A stretch of 46,118 nt of DNA from Ectocarpus siliculosus (taxonomy: Eukaryota > Sar > Phaeophyceae > Ectocarpales > Ectocarpaceae), in the NCBI GenBank assembly GCA_000310025.1, contig FN649751.1, forward strand, positions 1,787,030 to 1,833,147. Direction: 5' to 3'. The translations under genes and the position numbers were made by a program. The notes below the pieces were generated by a model, which was not told where the DNA came from, ran no database searches, and was given only the letters and a program-made list of their open reading frames with translations. This document shows positions 24,768 through 45,000 of the stretch, in pieces (positions within the stretch are counted from its first letter, which is position 1; every line of letters starts with the position of its first letter).

Positions 24768-27700
24768 TGTCGTCGCCGACTCGCCCGCTCCGGCCGCCGC
24801 CGTCGGCAGTGCCGGCGAAAACGCGGGCGCCAGCGGCGGGGCCGGGCTCCCGCCCTCCCCGGCCATCCTCGCGGCGAGCGCCTCCTCCGGAATCTCGGAG
24901 AACCCCGAGTCTTGACCGCCCTTGTCCTTGCTCGCGTCTGCCCGAGTTGCACCTTCCGCAGTGGGCGCCAAGCCCCCGCTCACCGCGGCGCCGCCGTCGC
25001 CGGCTACGGCCGCCACCGCTGCCCCGTGCCCCCGTTCCTGCTCTTCGTATCCCCCGTCCCTCTGCAGCCCCGTGCCTGTTCCTCCGCCTTCTCCGACCAG
25101 AGCGTCACCGCTGCTACCACCGTCGGGGTTAGCGGTGTCACGAGCAGCGGAATCCTCCAGCTCCGCACCGTCCGACCGATTTTCCACCTCTTCCCGTGCC
25201 GCAGCAGAGGGGGAGGAGGACGTTCCCGCAACGGCCGCCGCTTCCTCTTCTCCCGCCGCTACTGCCGAGGCGGCGGGTGCGTCGCCCTCGTTCGCGCTCG
25301 CGACGTTCATGACCAAGGCTTCCGCCGCCGCCGCGGGCGGCAGGAAGGGGAGCTTGACCACGGTGGCCGTGATGTCGTCGCGGTAGTCGCCGACCATGTC
25401 GGACCATCTCCGGTTCGCCATCTCCATCAGACCCTTGCAGGCTCCCGCCGCGTCTTCTCCCCTGTCGAAAAAGCCCTGCACAATCTCCGACGCCTATCGA
25501 GAGGCCGCATGACACGAAGCAAGAAACAATCATCGGCGGGGGTGGGGGGGGCGGGGGGTTGAGGGCAGTAGTATGAAAATACCATTGATCTGGGCTGCTT
25601 ATTCAAGACGAAGTTTGAGATCCAAGGGCTCATCTCTAGGGAAAAGGGAGCGAGGCGAGCAAGCCTATCTCGCGCCTGCTTTCCATGGCCGCGAAACCAT
25701 CTTGGCCAGCACGGGCAAAAGGCGAAACGTTTTAGGGGTGCACCGTACTCTTATGCAGGCTGACGTGGCAACGGGCTCTCGATGGGACACAGCAAAAAGG
25801 GGGAGCTGGCGAACTGAACATGAAAATATCAATCCGACGACGTGCATACCCGTCAACATATACGGAGGGTGTAGACTCGCGCCTAAACTAGACGGTACGC
25901 AACCTACTCGCCTCCTGGTTGTCGATGAACTCCCAGACTCCATCGCTGGCAAGCACGAGGAACTCGTCTTCGGGCTGGAGGACATACTCCGTTACCTCCG
26001 GCAGGGCGATGACCCCAACCTGAACACAGAAAACCATCCACAATTGTAAAAAAATCGCCACTGGTGGTTTTGCCACGCAACCAACCGTACAGACGGGTGC
26101 TACATGTCCTCAAGATACACGTGCTGCCATTCCCCTAAGCCAGAAACAACCAGACGCGGTATAGACATCGCTCTGCTAAATAGATTCGAGCCGGCGGTCG
26201 GGTACTAGCGTAGCGGTAACCTTGCAACAACCCCCGGCGATATCACGGCGCTAAATCCCGCTGTCCGGAGGGGAAGAGACACAAGACCTGCGTGTCGCAT
26301 GTGTGTCGCACAGCCAACAGAAAAGGACAGCAGCGCAACACTACACGCTAGGTTCGGAATACTACCGCCAATCAATTCATACAAAATCTTGGGGGGGACA
26401 TCTCTCCTACAACGCCTCATTAAGGCATGGCGCACGCCAAAAAAAAAAAAAAAAACTGCGGAATTGGCAACGCCGAGTCCAGTAAAAATTGTTCGGGTGC
26501 TAATCCCCAATGGCCCGTGCGTCAACCGAATATCGAAAGGTGGAGAGCTTCTTTTCTTGTTCTTCCAGAATACATGGCACGAGAGAGAAACATTCTCTCA
26601 CCCCTCGCAAAAAAAACAAAAAAACTCACCCTCTTGACGGCCAGGTCGCCGATCGACCTCGCCATGGCCAGCCCGACCAGCGTCCTCGTCGCGTCCAACC
26701 AGACCTGAAAGATGCGCAAGGGTTATACAATACAACGGATTGGCTCGTCAGGGTGAGACAACGGAGTAGTTTAAGGCATATCGAGGAGAGATAAAGAATC
26801 ATGTGATCGTGTGTCAGTAGGGACAAAACTCCACAGAACACACACACATACACACAACCGCTTGTTCGCACTTTCCCCCCTCCAAGACTGGCGCCCTTTC
26901 GCTGGCCACCATGTCGGCGTGGTCGACAGTTTCAGACACACAACGCACACGGACGTGCGCGCGTAGCAAAACGAGAAACACCATCACGGGGCCTTTTCAA
27001 GCCTCCAGCGCACAGCGTGCCCCTCTTCGTACATACAACGCTGAAGCCAACATCTCTACACAAGCGTACCTTCTCCTTGTGCATACACCAATGCACACCT
27101 CTAGAAGTAAATATTCCTGAAATCAAGGTCCTTGAAATCAGCCTCTCTACACACCCTTGCTGATGCGCCCGCCTCTTCGGGGTCGCTCACGAACCCTCCA
27201 TCTACAAGTAAATATTCCCGAAAGTAAGGTCCCTGAAATCAACATCTTTACACACCCTTGCTGATGCGCCCGCCTCTTCGGGGTCGCTCACGAACCCTCC
27301 CATGGCCTCGATGCGCTCACGCTCTCCGGGGGAGTCGGGGTTCTGTGAGGCCGGCGGCGAGTCGCGGAACAAAATGCCAGGGAGGGGAAGGGGGGATGGC
27401 GGAGAAAACACCGCATGGGACAGTCGTGAGAGGGGTGCAAACGAGATAAAACGCACGCATGACGGTATATTACTATTAATACTTGCAAAGGGATATATGG
27501 GAAGCATGCGCCGGGAGTATCACACCCGCGCACATAACCGCAGCACATACTAGGCATGATATCAACGCACGGCGCACACAACAACAATACATGCCACTTG
27601 CACATAAAAAAAAAAGAAACACGAGTATTTCAGACGGGTCCTACCACAGGGAGGGGGAAAGAGTTGGAAAAGTGGTATTTTACTGGAGTTCGCTGAAGTA

Positions 27701-29069
27701 CATGGCATTTAACCGTAACTTCTACAATATGGCGACGACATGCCACGAAAAAACGTTCGTGTCACCGACAGACCTGATCGCGTGTCAGCCCGCGCGCGAC
27801 GACCAAGCCGTCCTTCCCCCTCCCGGCCACGAGCGCCCGCGAGTCGCCGGCGTTCGCGACCCACACCCTCGGCCCCCTCACCAGAGCCACCACCGCCGTG
27901 CAGCCGCCGAAAACGGCGTTGATGCCGGACTTTGGCAGGGAAGAGTTGATGTCCAAAAACACGTCCTCCAATGCGCTGAGAAAGGGTAGGATCGGGAAGA
28001 GGGGGTAGCGGGACAATAGTGGGAATGGGGAGGGGGGTTCCAGGGGTATATTCTGTGTCTTGGTGGCGAATATCGGGGGGCTGGACGGGGGAGGTGCGAT
28101 ATTCTTTACGCCATGAATGTCGTACCCTTCGGATCGTTGGCGGCAAGAGAGAGGAAAGGGATGGGGGCTATACACGCAGTCAAGGGCCCAAGACGAAATC
28201 AACGCGTTAAAACCTTAAAGAAAGGGAGCACGGACCGGGATCGGAGGGGCGTCCGTCCTGCCCCAAACTGGGGTTAAGGGCCAATACCGGGGGAGGTGTG
28301 GTGGTACGAAATCCTTGATGACACTTTGATCAAGGGGGTCACGAAGAAGATACCGTTCCCGCCCCCCTCCCGGACCCCGGAAAAAGAACTCAAAAGGAAT
28401 TAGTGTAGGGTCCCCATTAGAGCGTGAAAGTCAGTGTTCTCTGGGGTTCGGGGGGGGGGAGGGCTATCTTCTGCGTGACCCCCTCTGACAGGGTTTAGTA
28501 TCCCCCCCCCCTCCGGTATTGGCCCTTATCCCAGTTTGGGGCAGGAAGTCTCCGATCCTGCTCGGTGTGCCCTGTTGGTTTGCCCAACAGGGGGCTCCGC
28601 AGGTATGCCACAAACGCACACCCACAGTTGCGGAATCGTCAACAACAACAACAACAACAACAAATGCAATTCACGGCAAAGAAATTGTAAACGACCCACC
28701 ACAACGCAGTACGAGCAGACTTGCGAGGTTGTTTCCTTCAAGAACTCGTTCGTCCAGCCTTTTGCAGACGATACACAACTTCACACCTACATACACAACT
28801 TTCACACATCGTATCGGAGAGGACGTTGCGCACGTAGTAAAACCACACCAGCAACCAACAGGCACCCACGTCACCATCTGTGGTAGCGGAATAGACCGAC
28901 GTCACCATCTCGTGGTAGCGGATAGAGCGACCAAGACTCGTGTCTTTCAAGTCGTCCTTTGCTGTTGTAAGGAGCGGTACTAGGTTTGTGGTTGGTAGCC
29001 AGGCAACGGATGTATAAGAACAAACGCTCAAACTCTCTCGTTTTTCTCTCTATTTGTCCGCCCGTCAGA

Positions 29070-29139
<70 letters not shown>

Positions 29140-32100
29140 CACACAGGGATCCAGACCTCTGTCTGCCTGTCTGTCTGTCTGTGTGTGTCTCTCTCTCTCT
29201 CTCTCTCCCTACCTCACCTGACGGGGTCGCGAATGGATTCCGGGTGGAGCTCTAATCTGCGGGGCACCTCCCGCATCGTGTACGCGGCCACGTGCTCTCC
29301 GTTCTCCCCGTGTCCTTTTCGGTCAACAGCAGTGTCAAAAAAAGTCGACCCACCCCCCCCCAGCCGACAAGCCGGAAGAGCACACAGAGGGCAAGCGTGT
29401 TGAGCGTGGAGAAAAGGAAGAGATTCAAAAATAAAATAAAAGGAAGTATTATTCTTGATCCATGAAATAGAGAGGGGGGGTTCGTAACCCTTACCTACAG
29501 CCCAACCCCCAACCCAATCCCGTAACCCGTACTAAAACCAAGCCAAGCAATCTCGCATAGGCTATTGCCTGGTACGGCGGATGCTACTGCACACCGCCGT
29601 TATGTTGGCATACTGCTGTATGCACACTCGTACATCACGGGGCGCGCGCACCAACAACGCAGAGGAGGCTCGAACCACAACGGCTCTGTGAGCGAGAGAC
29701 ATGATACTGAGGTGTATAAAATGCAAGCTCGAAGACATCAACGGGTGCCTCGTTGTTACACGGCGAATACGAACTTGAGAGGTTCGCCTGGACTACGCTA
29801 GGCTTCCAACCAACTCGCATGTTCTCTCAGTGTGGCCACAAAACACAGGGCCACTGCTCGGCACCGTTCTTAATTAATGGCACTCGTCCTGCCTCCCCCA
29901 AAGACAATTGATCAGCAGTAAACAAACAGCACTTTGCTTTCCTTTTTAGAACGAACCGAAAAATCGGGGTTGCGAAATCACCACAACAACGATAAAAAAA
30001 AAACAACGGAAATCCGCCTGCTGATTGGGCGATGACTGACGGTCCCTGGCCTGTGCACAAAATGTACATAAGCCGTCTCTAGTTTAAAAGCTCTATCAAA
30101 TGCCCCCCCGAACCCCGAAATCGAGGGGACATTTGATAGGGCTTTTAGAAAACAACCCGCAGGAGCGTGGTACATAAACGAAGCACAGAAAGGAGGTTTC
30201 GAGATATTCTGCTAGGAAGAAAGCGATACCTCGACGTCCAAAGCTCCACCATGCCCGCCCGGTTGCCCATTTTGTCGGTGGGTGAGGTGTGTTTGTTCGA
30301 GCTAGGCCCTGGTAGCGCTGTCTGCCCAGGGACAGATTGACGCGGTGTAACTTCACCGTTGAACCAGCAGGGCTGCAGGAAGCACCTGCCGTACATGGTC
30401 AAATCGTCGCGAGGTCCTTTTCCGCTTCCACCCCCCCCCGTCCAACGCCACAAAAGCCCATGGCGCTCAACGCCTATACCGGCACTCCCCTTGTCGAGGA
30501 GTCCATAGGCGGAGATAGCCATGCAATCCTTCGCCAGATGAAGGGGGCCTACGACCATGATGCCACACGTGCCAGAGAGTTTGTGTTCGATGACGCCGGT
30601 GCGGTCGGTACGGGCTCATGCGCAAACGATAACCCGCCAGGAGCTCTACCAACAGAATTGTGGTCGGGTGTCAAGCGATTTGACTCACGANNNNNNNNNN
30701 NNNNNNNNNNNNNNNNNNNNNNNNNNNNNNNNNNNNNNNNNNNNNNNNNNNNNNNNNNNNNNNNNNNNNNNNNNNNNNNNNNNNNNNNNNTCAATCCTGT
30801 TGGTGGAGCTCCTGGTGGGTTGTCGTTAGCGCATGAGCCCGTACCGACCGCACCGGCGTCATCGAACGAAAACTCTCTGGCACGTTTAGCGGTACGGTCG
30901 TAGGCCTCCTTCATCTGGCGAAGGATTGCATGGCTATCTCCGCCTATGGACTCCTCGACAAGGGGAGTGCCGGGATAGGCGTTGAGCGCCATGGGCTTTT
31001 GTGGCGTTGGACGGGGGGGAGTGGAAGCGGAAAAGGACCTCGCGACGATTTGACCATGTGCGGCAGGTGCTTCCTGCAGCCCTGCTGGTTCAACGGTGAA
31101 GTTACACCGCGTCAATCTGTCCCTGGGCAGACAGCGCTACAGGGGCCTAGCTCGAACAAACACACCTCACCCACCGACAAAATGGGCAACCGGGCATCGT
31201 GGAGCTTTGAACGTCGAGGTATCGCTTTCTCCCTAGAAGAATATCTTGAAAACCTCCTTTCTGTGCTTCGTCAATGTACCACGCTCCTGCCGGTTGTTTC
31301 TGTAAAGCCCTACCAAATGTTTGATAGGCTGATAGGGGGGCATTTGATAGTGTTGGGTACATTTGATAGGGTCTTTAGACCAGAAACGGCTCAGGTGGGA
31401 ACATTGTGCATTGTGCACCGGTCAGGGACCGTCGATCACCGAAACAGCGGGCGATTTTTTTTTCTTTTACACTGCTCAGTGGGGATATTTGTGCACAGGT
31501 CCGGGACCTTCAATCATCGTCCCATCCGCGGCGTTTTTTTCGTTTCGAAATCTTTGTTGTGATCATTTCTCAGCCCCGATTTTTCTGTGCGTCCCAATGT
31601 GGAAACCAGGATACAAGGTAATGATACACATGCGACCGGCAAAGATCGTCGGACTACATGAACAATGTTCTACCGTCCAAGACATTTGCCAGGAAATATT
31701 CACAGAATACTGTGACTATTCATTGACTCTCGGAGATGGGGAGATGGCGGCGAAAGCGCCCCACGCTCCTCACTCTCACACATTCCACCTTTCTTGAACT
31801 AGATAGCTAAGGCCAGACTCTTGGCTACGCTTGGCACTTCCTCGCCACATTACAAGAAAGGCGATTTTACCTCCGTTGGTGAACGGTTATTCACCACTTC
31901 AGGGACCCTTTGCTCGAAACAGAGAAAGGGTATTCTCATTGGCGTCGACGAAGAACCAAAGGGGTTCAGATTAAGCGTACCACGTAAAAAAAACAACCTC
32001 AGCGACGGTGCGAAAAAACACTCACCGTCGAACACACCAAAGACGGTGTGTTTCGCCCTGTTGAGGGAAGGGTGCGAGATGAGCCCCCTGTCCTGATTGA

Positions 32101-33667
32101 CCTTGTAGATCACTCGCCCCTCGTGGGTCACCATCAACCCCCCCCTCGAGAAAGATCCCACGGAGCCTTTCAGGAAGGTCGCCGAAGGCTTCTTCTTCTA
32201 TTATGCAGATTTTTTTTTTATTCGCACACACGAAGGTGTGGATAGACCGTCGTGGTGTTGGGCGTCGGTCGTCCACGTGAAAACGAGGTACGGGTTATTG
32301 CGCGCAGCAGCAAGTAGAAGCACGAAGACATTCGGGGTGAAGAGAGAGAGAGGGATGTTGATCGTACCATCTTACAGAGAAATAGCAAGAGCTGGGTAGG
32401 GCCGCGACTTAGCCCGAAAAGCGAAGTATTCATGATGTGCCCACATCCTGACCAGTTCCTGCTGCTGAATCTAATAGAGACCGGCGTGTAAACAACGGCT
32501 CACTACAGCAACCACCAACAACGTCCTACGTATGTATATATGTACGCGGCCGTGTTTTGTGGTACACCACACACTCCATACAGCCGTTGTAACGTAATCG
32601 TACCTAAGGTGCTAAACAGCGGTGCGCGGCAAAAATCGTGAAAAGGCACACATACCAGCCCATCTCACGTGCCCATGGACCGTACACCCAGAAAACACAC
32701 ACACAACACGCACGTATGCATACGTATCTTTGACCTATTTATTTGAAATTTCTGTGCGGGGAACGCCAAAAAAAAAATTCCTGCATGAATCCTTTGAGGT
32801 GCCCCACGGGGGTTGTACCAGTGTTGAAGGGTGCACCCGATTTGAAGATTTACTCAAGTGTCCGGCGTAGATTCTTCCTGGATGCTGCGTACCAAGGACT
32901 GCTGCTGCAAAACCGCTGCCGCTGCTACTGCTGCTGCTGCCGCCGCCGCTACTGGCGTCGTGCGAGGAAAGGCCGCGCTGTGGAAGACCGGCTGAGGTGT
33001 AGGTATAACATAGGTTCCGGGTTCCGAATCAAAGAGCAGCCTCTTTCAGAGGCGGATCGCACCGCACACACCCGGGGTGTCTCTCCCCTTCACCGACAAC
33101 GTCTGACTTCCAACCACACGGTCTGAAATGCTCAAAGGTTCGACGATGTACTTCGTACCTACACAGAGATGGCCGCATACATGCCCCGCGTGGGCTTACC
33201 TTGGCGGTTTTCGACTGCTCCTGCTGTTCCTTGCCGAGAGCATGATCATCCCCGTCGTCCCCGGACCCCACCTGCGTGGTAGCAACTTCCTCAATCTCGC
33301 CCCCGCCTCGGCGCCGCAGGTGGCTGGCCAGGTAGCGAATCACGCCCGCGAAGGCCACCGAAGGGCTGCGTCCTGCGTACGACGCAACAGCAGTAGCTTC
33401 GGCGGCAGCAGCCGGCGGCGGCGGCGGCGGCGGCCCAGCAATAGCAGTCGCCTTTCGTGTGTCGGACATCTCCTCTATCGTTGACGGTGTTCGACCGGCC
33501 GACGCGGGGTTGTTGCCCCCCCCACCTCTCGCGGTAGCGACCCATGCCGCCGGGCTCGCCAGCTCGAAGAAGGCGACGCAGCACAGCAGGACGATGAGGG
33601 TGTAGCCGGGCCAGGGGAGGGAGAGAGAGGCCAAGCACAGCACCCACGCTGCTACTACAACCCACAT
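24495..33667 (-). CDS. PP2C-type protein phosphatase with hydrophobic N-terminus and acidic tail
   Basis: Metal-dependent Ser/Thr phosphatase. Minus-strand exons 33667-33200, 32197-32026, 29314-29218, 27975-27774, 27342-27256, 26704-26630, 26019-25912 and 25493-24495 (stop) join in phase to 735 residues. Residues 1-45 are strongly hydrophobic in two blocks, suggesting a signal anchor or membrane hairpin. A poly-proline stretch follows. The catalytic domain spans about 170-455: KVNQDRG (metal Asp192), [16 protein letters not shown] (Asp213-Gly214), [20 protein letters not shown] (289-294), [24 protein letters not shown] (354-362), [19 protein letters not shown] (Asp393) and DDITATVV (442-449). 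The key metal-binding aspartates are present, so it is probably active. The last 280 residues are disordered, with about 12 Asp in a row and an acidic [13 protein letters not shown] block. The last intron needs a GC donor. The intron 32025-29315 carries the inverted-repeat element and assembly gap. Membrane placement is inferred. Confidence 0.92.
24731..24767. repeat. ATC trinucleotide repeat coding poly-aspartate
   Basis: A near-perfect CAT/ATC run on the plus strand. On the minus strand it is in the last PP2C exon and encodes about 12 consecutive aspartates in the acidic tail. The repeat is likely length-variable between strains. Confidence 0.95.
27105..27300 (-). repeat. 101-base tandem duplication of a PP2C exon tail and donor
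   Basis: Two copies start at 27105 and 27206 (period 101 bases) and are about 90 percent identical. The right copy (27206-27300) contains the last part of PP2C exon 27342-27256, its GTGTGT donor and the first bases of the intron. The left copy repeats the same codons ([15 protein letters not shown]) and donor inside the intron. The exon's own start (the [10 protein letters not shown] part) is not duplicated, so the extra copy lacks an acceptor and is probably a decoy or alternative donor. Confidence 0.85.
28229..28567. mobile_element. Foldback (MITE-like) element, about 340 bases
   Basis: The ends are inverted repeats of 60-70 bases: 28229-28297 pairs with 28511-28567, sharing GATCGGAG, CCTGCCCCAAACTGG and AAGGGCCAATACCGG. 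The homology continues inward: GGGGGTCACG.AGAAGATA at about 28336-28354 pairs with its complement near 28468-28487. Almost the whole element is thus one imperfect palindrome. It has no ORF and lies in the PP2C intron between exons 29314-29218 and 27975-27774. This fits a non-autonomous miniature transposable element; a target-site duplication is not obvious. Confidence 0.85.
29072..29136. repeat. CT microsatellite in PP2C intron
   Basis: About 32 CT units, followed by TGTC/CT-rich DNA up to the donor at 29217. On the coding minus strand it is a GA-rich tract starting just after the donor of exon 29314-29218. Confidence 0.95.
29925..30690 (+). mobile_element. Left arm of a long inverted repeat, with partial ORF reading into the gap
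   Basis: This arm matches 30791-31615 in reverse complement, with roughly 5-15 percent difference and small indels. The outer limit is near 29925-29950, where GAAAAATCGGGG is shared by both arms. Near the outer part lie several copies of CATTTGATAG or its complement, like subterminal transposon repeats. An open frame with ATG at 30460 (starting [10 protein letters not shown]) runs into the N gap at 30691, so its end is unknown. It has a conserved central block around [12 protein letters not shown] and a later [19 protein letters not shown] block. I recognise no family; a transposon gene is likely from context. Confidence 0.75.
30691..30790. other. Assembly gap of 100 N
   Basis: Exactly 100 unknown bases sit at the centre of the inverted repeat. 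The round number suggests a placeholder of unknown true length. Translations that run across it are artefacts. Confidence 0.99.
30791..31615 (-). mobile_element. Right arm of the long inverted repeat, with partial ORF reading into the gap
   Basis: This mirrors the left arm. The same open frame starts with ATG at 30992 on the minus strand ([10 protein letters not shown]) and runs down into the gap at 30790. Its peptide differs from the left copy at scattered residues but has no frameshift or stop, which suggests both arms derive from a coding element. The outer part contains a tandem duplication of about 85 bases (near 31415 and 31495, each with GTGCAC.GGTC.GGGACC), absent from the left arm, and several CATTTGATAG words at 31310-31375. 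Confidence 0.75.
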
Positions 33668-42750: not shown

Positions 42751-45000
42751 CTGCACGAAATGACGTACAGCAAAGAGAGAGAGAGAAAAGGTGCCCGCAG
42801 TATTCTGATTGGTCAAATATTTTGAAAGGAAACTCCCTTTGGTCGAATAGTAATCCGATGAGAACCCTTTGGTAGCGTAGCGCCTCTCTCTGGCTTGAAT
42901 CGCGTGCGGCTCTGCCGTGCAGCAGGCAACAGCCGTGGTTGGTTTTCGTCCCCCGCCCGACAACAAACACCGCGGACGGCTGTACGAGGTACCCTCCCTG
43001 CTCAACATTTTCACCCGCAGTTTCTGTGTCCGAAACTGGTCTCGAGGGAGAAGAGAGCAGTTTCTTGTCCGAAGCTGGCCTCGGAGCAGTTTCTTGTCCT
43101 AAGCTGGCCTCGAGCGAGATGAGAGCAGTTTCTTGTCGGAAGCTGGTCTCGATGGAGAAGAGTCGCGTCACGGTCACATGACCACCGGTTGATCTCTTTT
43201 TTACGACGCCCTACACATGCAGTAGATAGAGTGTGGGAACTTCACGGGTATTCAAACGCACGCGGCGTGACTGCCCCCGAACAAGAAGCCCTCCCTGGAA
43301 AGACCTCTGAACACATCCGTCAGAACGGGTGCCATCTCGACCGGGTATTTAACGCTTTCTTGATGCCATGTGTGCATTTTAGTCAACGCGGCGGAAAGCA
43401 CCACCAAGAGAGATAAAACTCTGACACGGGCACAAAACAGCAAGCGCGACGCAAGACAGAAAGACAGAAGGGCGCCATCAATAGAAACGCCTTCACCATC
43501 AGAACCACAAAAATGTAAGCCCGTAAAGACGTGAAGGACTGGGGGGGGGGCAAAGACCGAGAACAACAAAAACGAACAAGCACACAGGTCTACGGCTTGC
43601 GTTGATATGACAAGCAGCTCGAAATTTTAATTTTCGTACCGGCAAAAAAATCGCCCGGGTGATGAGTAAATAACGTGCTAAATATAGAGTGAATGTACAA
43701 ATGAAGGTTAGGACAGCGCACGCAACGTCGAGACCGACGAAATCAAAACATCCGAAAATGGACCAGACGTCACCGAAATTGACGACGTGACCCCTTCCTC
43801 CCTCTGTCATGAACTACCGACGCCCCCCATCTTCTTCTCTCTTTCGTCTACACCTACAACACTTTCGGCGAAACAGCAAGCGCGGCCAGAACAAGACTCG
43901 CGCGGCAACTTCGACATGTACGCGTGAAACATACACTAGAGACCAATCAGCAAGCTACAAAATGTGGAGACCGCACCCCCGAGGGTAAAAACGTAAAAAA
44001 TGCCAACAAACGCGAAGCAACAAGTGCCACCAGGCCACATAAACAAACGAAAAAACGCATTTTATCTGTACAAGGCAAGCAAACACAAGAATAAATAGCA
44101 AACCCTTTGACCACACGCTTTTCCTACCCATTGCATTGTTTTCCAGCCCTCGCGACTGCGACGTGTCGTCCCGAAAAACGAAGCTCTAGACTGTGGCTTA
44201 GAATTAGAGTTTTTTTTACTACAGTAACAGTACGTTCTGTACAAAGACGCACGGAGTCAAAGGGAAACACAAATACACACCATCACCACACCATTCACAC
44301 CCCCGCTAGAATACCTAAACCAAACGAACCGAAACTACACGACACCATGCCACACCACACCACACCACACAACACAACACAACAACAACAACATACTCTC
44401 ACTTTTTCTCAGGGCTTGCGGCACAAAACACAAACGACACATGACAACACCCCTTTGGCATCACATACATCAATGTGACTGCAGAATACGCGGCTAGTCT
44501 GCCACCTTGCGCCCGCTTGCTCTACCCCCCTGTCGATACTCTTCTCTCCCTGGCCCGCGGCGTGCTCAACGCGCCAACATATGATGAACCTCTACCACTT
44601 CCGTTGTTCTCGTTTATGCTCGTCCCCGTGAATAGTGCGAGGAATCTTCAATTTCGATAGTCCACGAACGGCCGCGCACGCAGGACGGAGACGATTGTTA
44701 CAGCCAAGGGGGCAGCAGCAGCACTCCAAAGTGCCGCCACGCCCCGTCTCGACGGACGGATGCCTTATCGCCAAGAGGCTCAAAGGAGGCTCAAAATGAG
44801 CTGCTCGTACCGCCTCTTACCCCCCTTTTACACAGCGGCACCACCCCCGGCGCAACAACTACCGCTGTCGCCACCGCCACCTACGGCAACTATGACGCCC
44901 GCGCTGTGGACACGCCCTTTGGTCGCAGAGGCAGCCGCCGCCCCCCCCCCGCGCGCCGTGATCTCGCACTCCCTCACCACTACTGTTGACGCCCCCGCCG
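42751..45000. other. Intron or intergenic DNA, no gene supported
   Basis: This should contain the upstream exons of the 42583-42750 gene, but none is convincing. Hydrophobic minus-strand frames at about 43810-43250 are AT-rich. A CACACC/CAACA-rich simple stretch occupies 44270-44400. A plus-strand frame after an AG at 44482-44483, ending near 44660, looks mildly exon-like but stands alone. Confidence 0.4.
43018..43160. repeat. Minisatellite, four units of 30-40 bases
   Basis: Units start with CAGTTTCT at 43018 (CAGTTTCTGTG), 43058, 43086 and 43124, and continue GAAGCTGG.CTCGA.GGAGA. The second unit is shortened. It lies upstream (on the minus strand) of exon 42750-42583. Confidence 0.85.

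What the first reader, a model, noticed from the sequence alone, without database searches (positions are those of the whole stretch)
29925..31615. Long inverted repeat around an assembly gap, both arms coding inward
Each arm carries the same ORF start reading toward the 100-N gap, preceded by repeated CATTTGATAG words. The arms differ by substitutions, indels and one extra 85-base duplication, so this is not a simple assembly mirror. Both ORF copies remain open. It may be a transposon with very long terminal repeats that include coding sequence, or two element copies inserted tail to tail. The ORF matches no family I know.
Basis: partly seen in the sequence, partly recalled or inferred. Interest (0 to 1): 0.7.

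Follow-up and report, generated by a model that had tools for sequence, protein, structure and literature searches.

The report
Palindromic relic of a piggyBac transposon
An old, decayed piece of jumping DNA whose same end was copied twice, face to face, sits around an assembly gap, most likely inside an intron of a phosphatase gene; its layout resembles the maize Mu killer locus, but it looks like a relic rather than a working device.

Summary
The inverted repeat is real: arms 29941-30660 and 30791-31602 around a 100-N gap. Both arms are the same (5') end of a piggyBac-type DNA transposon, head to head. The shared ORF is the first exon of an unclassified element gene (ORF1); relatives carry ORF1 opposite a piggyBac transposase (PF13843, E=1.5e-12), and 11 of 13 relatives' 5' ends carry TTAA. 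Two more palindromes of the family, without gaps inside, lie on C33 (1706-nt arms, 5 mismatches) and C75, so palindromes arose repeatedly. Window arms are mosaic: 65/210 outer and 27/507 inner sites differ (0 of 1000 shuffles); regional rate explains part of this step, arm-to-arm conversion or inverted copying probably the rest. Parts of a PP2C gene lie on both sides of the gap in the order seen in a paralogue, which supports the join and an intronic site. The layout closely resembles maize Mu killer, but the window palindrome shares at most 12 of 1530 21-mers with any of 11 other loci tested: a relic, not a present silencer. Interest is modest.

The parts
29937..29940 (.). CTTT at the place where relatives carry the TTAA target site (decayed or never TTAA)
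   Evidence: alignment with C10, C107, C83 (TTAACC) and C75
29941..30150 (+). outer part of left arm: 5' end of a piggyBac-type element, nearly as distant from the right arm as from other subfamilies
   Evidence: changepoint: 65/210 mismatches to the right arm outside it
30085..30147 (+). subterminal hairpin with inverted CATTTGATAG copies; exact inverted pairs also in C10 and C75, single exact copies in C33 and C24, none in L020, L021, L055
   Evidence: I8; motif positions
30151..30660 (+). inner part of left arm, 5% different from the right arm
   Evidence: 27/507
30460..30660 (+). ORF1 exon 1 fragment, 67 codons, left copy
30661..30690 (+). sequence after the end of homology, start of the palindrome's centre
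   Evidence: 31-base pattern covering it found once in the genome with up to 3 mismatches
30691..30790 (.). 100-N assembly gap
30791..31299 (-). inner part of right arm
30792..30992 (-). ORF1 exon 1 fragment, right copy
31300..31602 (-). outer part of right arm with a diverged tandem duplication (31411-31441 and 31488-31544)
31603..31606 (.). AAAC at the expected target-site place
32026..32161 (-). probable 5' exon of a PP2C phosphatase gene, ending FDG|GTGAGT (splice donor read by eye)
   Evidence: (47% match upstream of the C23 PP2C exons); no Pfam or PDB hit to PP2C
25906..28214 (-). later exons of the same PP2C gene (PF00481 profile 99-134 at 27792-27911 and 185-222 at 25906-26019)

Best explanation
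It is a dead, palindromic (foldback-type) derivative of a two-gene piggyBac-type transposon, most likely lying in an intron of a PP2C gene. Shown: both arms are homologous to the 5' end of dispersed elements, carry the first exon of ORF1 and face inward; relatives carry ORF1 and a piggyBac transposase on opposite strands; two other palindromes of the family exist. Inferred: the palindrome arose when a broken or replicating element end was copied back on itself by template switching (in C33 the centre holds a 66-nt piece of the transposase end joined with about 9 nt of overlap), or when such a copy ran into an older inverted end. The inner arms were then probably kept alike, or remade, by gene conversion while the outer arms drifted, helped by a higher rate of change in the outer part. 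With two 5' ends, no transposase in the arms and no TTAA, it can probably no longer move. If the host gene is transcribed, its intron would contain ORF1 sense, spacer and ORF1 antisense, a natural hairpin RNA.
For: The longest matches of the arms to C33, C24, C10, C107 and C83 are 67-73% identical, the arms to each other 86% over 688 nt. 5' ends carry TTAA in 7 of 8 copies of families a and c and in 4 of 5 copies of family b; the 655-bp relatives have TTAA at both ends in 3 of 3. PF13843 is over cut-off in the >99% identical family b that shares ORF1, and phmmer hits piggyBat transposase (2.5e-5). ORF1 and transposase lie on opposite strands in L055, and by tblastx in C24 and L060. Palindromes C33 and C75 have no N inside. 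Divergence step, LL gain 39, 0 of 1000 shuffles; its outer/inner ratio 6.2 exceeds those of 13 other pairs (1.1-4.0). PP2C order matches the C23 paralogue. ORF1 dN/dS 0.2-0.3 between the window and C10/C33, so ORF1 was a real gene.
Against: No TTAA at the window's own ends. The transposase fragment in the nearest two-gene subfamily (C24) gave no Pfam hit over cut-off and is linked only by tblastx (37-54%), where the opposite frame of the same piece also aligned (38-45%). The genome-wide PF13843 search did not complete. The gap hides the centre, so a larger insert is possible. For the step: among close pairs the outer part also changes 1.5-4.0 times faster than the inner part, and the window's step is not clearly beyond two of seven of them (z 0.9 and 1.35). 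The PP2C 5' exon has no Pfam or PDB hit to PP2C, and no exon for profile positions of about 35-95 was found.
Confidence: 0.78

Rival explanations
1. Two separate elements of related subfamilies inserted head to head (one near or into the other), lost their 3' parts, and their inner parts were later made alike by gene conversion.
For: Outer arms are nearly as far apart (27%) as each is from C75 (26-31%) or C10 (28-35%), as expected of two independent subfamilies.
Against: Needs two insertions at one spot, two similar 3' deletions and a conversion; two other single-locus palindromes show that the family makes palindromes.
Confidence: 0.13
2. Assembly artefact: a scaffolder joined two contig ends that each stop in a copy of the same repeat, with wrong order or orientation.
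For: A 100-N gap sits at the centre; other 100-N gaps also fall inside repeats of this kind (L052, L062).
Against: PP2C parts are in the right order and strand on both sides, matching the C23 paralogue. Inner arms are each other's closest relatives by far among the copies aligned (5% against 22-26%). Flanks are not mirrored. Palindromes of the family without N inside exist.
Confidence: 0.06
3. A working natural silencer like maize Mu killer: intronic hairpin RNA of ORF1 feeds small RNAs against the transposon family.
For: Same-end-twice layout, partial inverted gene copies, a host gene probably reading through, 204 of 734 left-arm 21-mers exact in the right arm. The C33 palindrome shares up to 2123 of 3553 21-mers with C10 and lies about 0.9 kb downstream of a GatB domain exon on the same strand.
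Against: The window palindrome shares only 0-12 of 1530 21-mers with each of 11 other loci tested and none with the one copy of family b tested, L055. No RNA data.
Confidence: 0.03

Closest known systems
Mu killer of maize (PMC3440606, abstract and passages read)
   Same: Both element ends come from the same end; two partial inverted copies of an element gene; the centre could not be sequenced; read-through from a neighbouring host gene is reported.
   Different: MuDR, the gene is the transposase gene mudrA, and the locus silences MuDR in crosses; here piggyBac type, the gene is ORF1, the arms are diverged, no RNA evidence.
Foldback-type elements such as Galileo (PMC2775673, passages read) and Tetris (PMC4079207, search listing only)
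   Same: Very long inverted ends; copies without coding capacity described for Galileo; derived from cut-and-paste transposons.
   Different: Galileo is placed in the P superfamily and occurs as a family of copies (recalled in part); the three palindromes here differ in arm length and centre, so each looks like a separate event.
piggyBac superfamily (transposase 9c0f piggyBat found; the Ectocarpus table entry DNA/PiggyBac, PMC12477816, passages read)
   Same: TTAA-flanked ends in relatives, DDE_Tnp_1_7 transposase.
   Different: The window copy has two 5' ends and no transposase in the arms; relatives carry a second gene, ORF1, on the other strand.
Coral piggyBac-linked MITEs (PMC2872659, abstract read)
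   Same: Short non-autonomous derivatives linked to piggyBac-like transposons, as L019-L021 here.
   Different: The abstract describes tandem arrays, not palindromes of one element end.

Membership tests
piggyBac superfamily (tested on relatives) | TTAA target-site duplication | tested here: met
   5' TTAA in 7 of 8 and 4 of 5 copies; both ends in 3 of 3 short relatives; 3' ends of the long copies were not reached
piggyBac superfamily (tested on relatives) | DDE_Tnp_1_7 transposase | tested here: met
   family b, PF13843 E=1.5e-12 over cut-off; nearest two-gene subfamily C24 by tblastx only, no Pfam hit over cut-off
piggyBac superfamily (window copy itself) | TTAA at both ends | tested here: not met
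   CTTT and AAAC: filed as a relic derived from the family, not as a working member
piggyBac superfamily (window copy itself) | own transposase | tested here: inconclusive
   none found in the arm ORFs; the centre is a gap
Foldback-type element | long inverted ends making up most of the element | tested here: met
   720 and 812 nt of 1662
Foldback-type element | amplified as a family of similar palindromes | tested here: not met
   three palindromes found, each different in arm length and centre; one search scored only 40 of 119 candidates
Mu killer-type silencer | same element end twice with inverted partial gene | tested here: met
Mu killer-type silencer | exact sequence shared with other copies to be silenced | tested here: not met
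   0-12 of 1530 21-mers with each of 11 loci
Mu killer-type silencer | small RNAs from the hairpin | not testable with these tools
   no RNA data

The most novel reading that the evidence does not exclude
In this genome a two-gene piggyBac lineage repeatedly folds its ORF1 end into palindromes beside or inside host genes; the young one (C33, arms alike at 1701 of 1706 sites) is a live, Mu killer-like hairpin source that restrains the lineage, and the window is an old, decayed example whose core was kept alike by arm-to-arm gene conversion.
Probability: 0.1. Interest if true: 0.7.

Novelty: new variant of a known kind. Interest (0 to 1): 0.36.

Why it matters
Mu killer is a well-studied natural hairpin locus that silences a transposon; a similar same-end-twice layout at three loci of a different superfamily in one genome would suggest that such palindromes are a recurrent by-product of DNA transposons and give small-RNA biologists concrete loci to test. 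It also shows a piggyBac lineage with a conserved second gene of unknown function. If only a relic, it is ordinary transposon decay, and the gap may simply mark a palindrome that is hard to assemble.

Tried and rejected
Haplotype mirror rejected: flanks outside the arms show no inverted similarity (28500-33500). Known RNA family in the window: none at Rfam gathering scores. Named protein family for ORF1: no hit in Pfam and only two weak PDB-profile hits (E 0.36 and 0.96). Faster change of the outer arms as the whole cause of the divergence step: not fully rejected. Six window-to-relative pairs have outer/inner ratios of 1.1-1.5 (z 5-6 below the window arms' 6.2), but seven close pairs have 1.5-4.0 (z 0.9-3.6), and the pairs are not independent; so a part of the step is regional rate, and conversion stays an inference. 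The shuffle control tests only against one uniform rate. ORF kept open by selection after the palindrome formed: not supported, dN/dS about 0.6 on 15 changes, too few to decide. The 3' end of the long family b element was not reached in L055 plus L062. Papers: neither of the two listed (piggyBac, long terminal inverted repeats, palindrom) has piggyBac palindromes in its title or abstract start; searches listed none in theirs either; this is no proof of absence. Organism not identified.

Full report
OBSERVATION. The window is C26:1787030-1833147 of a 189-Mb unnamed assembly of 492 contigs; the spliced genes and elements in it point to a eukaryote (inference). The inverted repeat is present as described around exactly 100 N at 30691-30790. 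Alignment with relatives puts the element at 29941-31602. The left arm follows the family to 30660 and then leaves it; the right arm follows it to its last base at the gap. The 31-base pattern that covers the left tail occurs once in the genome with up to 3 mismatches.

WHAT IT IS. A DNA search of the genome with the left arm gives 13 matches (counts there are lower bounds): the two window arms, a pair on C33, single places on C24, C10, C107 and C83, and five weaker ones. C33 is a second palindrome: 1706-nt arms with 5 mismatches, 83 nt between. C75 is a third, recognised by comparison with C24, with arms of about 400 nt in blocks at 91-97%, TTAA at the right and ATAA at the left end. Of the seven loci with a long match to this 5' end (C26, C33, C75, C24, C10, C107, C83), three are palindromes; in C24, C10, C107 and C83 no inverted repeat of 30 nt or more was found in the 7.5 kb fetched, of which C10 and C107 hold 1460 and 1286 N.

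The relatives carry TTAA at the 5' end in 7 of 8 copies (six TTAACC, C24 TTAAAC; the exception is C33) and in 4 of 5 copies of the other family (the exception is L052). The three 655-bp relatives L019-L021 have TTAA at both ends. Family b (main pieces of six compared copies over 99% alike, across up to 5.8 kb) carries ORF1 on one strand and transposase exons on the other: PF13843 with E=1.5e-12 and 4.1e-5, both over cut-off, and one phmmer hit, piggyBat transposase. C24 and L060 show the same arrangement by tblastx, where both frames of the transposase piece align (54% and 45% to L060, 37% and 38% to L055). The transposase fragment of C24 and the C-terminal exon of L055 gave no Pfam hit over cut-off; I recognise their motifs from memory only.

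ORF1. The protein search lists 44 matches. The first exon ends in RNQ|VS, a likely splice donor (inference). Members of distant subfamilies are 35-39% identical to the C33 copy. Between the window and C10 or C33, dS is 0.88-0.96 and dN 0.19-0.25 on 67 codons, so ORF1 was under purifying selection as a gene. No named family was found.

MOSAIC ARMS. Along 717 aligned sites the arms differ at 65 of 210 outer and 27 of 507 inner sites, with the best break at 30150|31299, log-likelihood gain 39.3 against a maximum of 9.6 in 1000 shuffles. The shuffles assume one uniform rate and independent sites. With a fixed break, distances between the arms are 0.27 outer and 0.05 inner; those to C75, C10, C33 and C24 are 0.26-0.35 outer and 0.22-0.26 inner. 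So the inner arms are four to five times closer to each other than to any other copy, while the outer arms are hardly closer. Against a special history: close pairs of family members also change faster outside (outer/inner ratios 1.5-4.0 in seven pairs; the window's is 6.2, z 0.9-3.6), though deep pairs do not (1.1-1.5 in six pairs, z 5-6). The break lies next to the CATTTGATAG hairpin. I read it as conversion between the arms, or inverted copying of one core onto an older end, on top of a regional rate difference. C75 shows no clear outer-inner contrast overall (14/264 and 8/144), though its outermost 40 sites have 5 differences. The 5 mismatches of C33 lie at both extremes of the arm (positions 15, 54, 1673, 1701, 1704).

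MECHANISM OF ORIGIN (inferred). In C33 the left arm runs for about 1.8 kb, then a 66-nt piece matching the transposase end of C24 follows, and the right arm starts with about 9 nt of overlap with that piece. This looks like template switching after a break or stalled copy. The window's centre is hidden.

HOST CONTEXT. Left of the palindrome on the minus strand lie PP2C exons (PF00481 positions 99-134 and 185-222). Right of it lies an open frame with FDG|GTGAGT. The only other match listed for it in the genome, on C23, is 47% identical (E 0.0014) and stands on the same strand just upstream of PP2C exons 96-147, 149-198 and 199-237. The order therefore matches, which supports the join and places the palindrome in an intron. 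Pfam and PDB tests of this short exon found no PP2C hit.

COMPARISON. The passages read of PMC3440606 describe Mu killer as having both ends from the mudrA side, two partial inverted copies of mudrA, and a centre that could not be spanned, and discuss read-through from a neighbouring gene. The window matches this layout. It fails the test of exact sequence shared with other copies: 0, 12, 12, 12, 5, 0, 0, 0, 0, 0 and 1 of 1530 21-mers for the eleven loci tested (C24, C10, C107, C83, C33, C75, C21/L055, L060, L019, L020, L021), while the C33 palindrome shares 1368, 2123, 1898 and 646 of 3553 with C24, C10, C107 and C83. C33 lies about 0.9 kb downstream of a GatB domain exon (PF02637, 4.3e-11) on the same strand. 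So C33, not the window, is the locus to test.

VERDICT. A real palindrome, a relic of a piggyBac-type element, unusual in layout and repeated in its family, with a strong known analogue. Modest interest.

Noticed in passing
27100-27300: Tandem duplication of 101 bp, 2.0 copies at 92%, overlapping open frames next to the PP2C exons.
   Followed up: no
43017-43151: 68-bp unit in two copies at 88%, containing a 29-bp inner repeat.
   Followed up: no
L014:1303-4875 (C33:1323802-1327374): Palindrome without N, 1706-nt arms with 5 mismatches, downstream of a GatB domain exon; best candidate for a live hairpin source.
   Followed up: partly
L059:3317-4348 (C75:103816-104847): Third palindrome of the family, about 1 kb, TTAA at one end and ATAA at the other.
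   Followed up: partly
L052-L057: Two-gene piggyBac-type family, six copies compared at over 99% in their main pieces, about 19 matches of nearly equal score; probably recently active. Contig C14 ends inside a copy (L053).
   Followed up: partly
C12, C2, C241, C16 and others: Many 250-280 bp matches to the part of the arm around the CATTTGATAG hairpin, probably a short non-autonomous family of its own.
   Followed up: no
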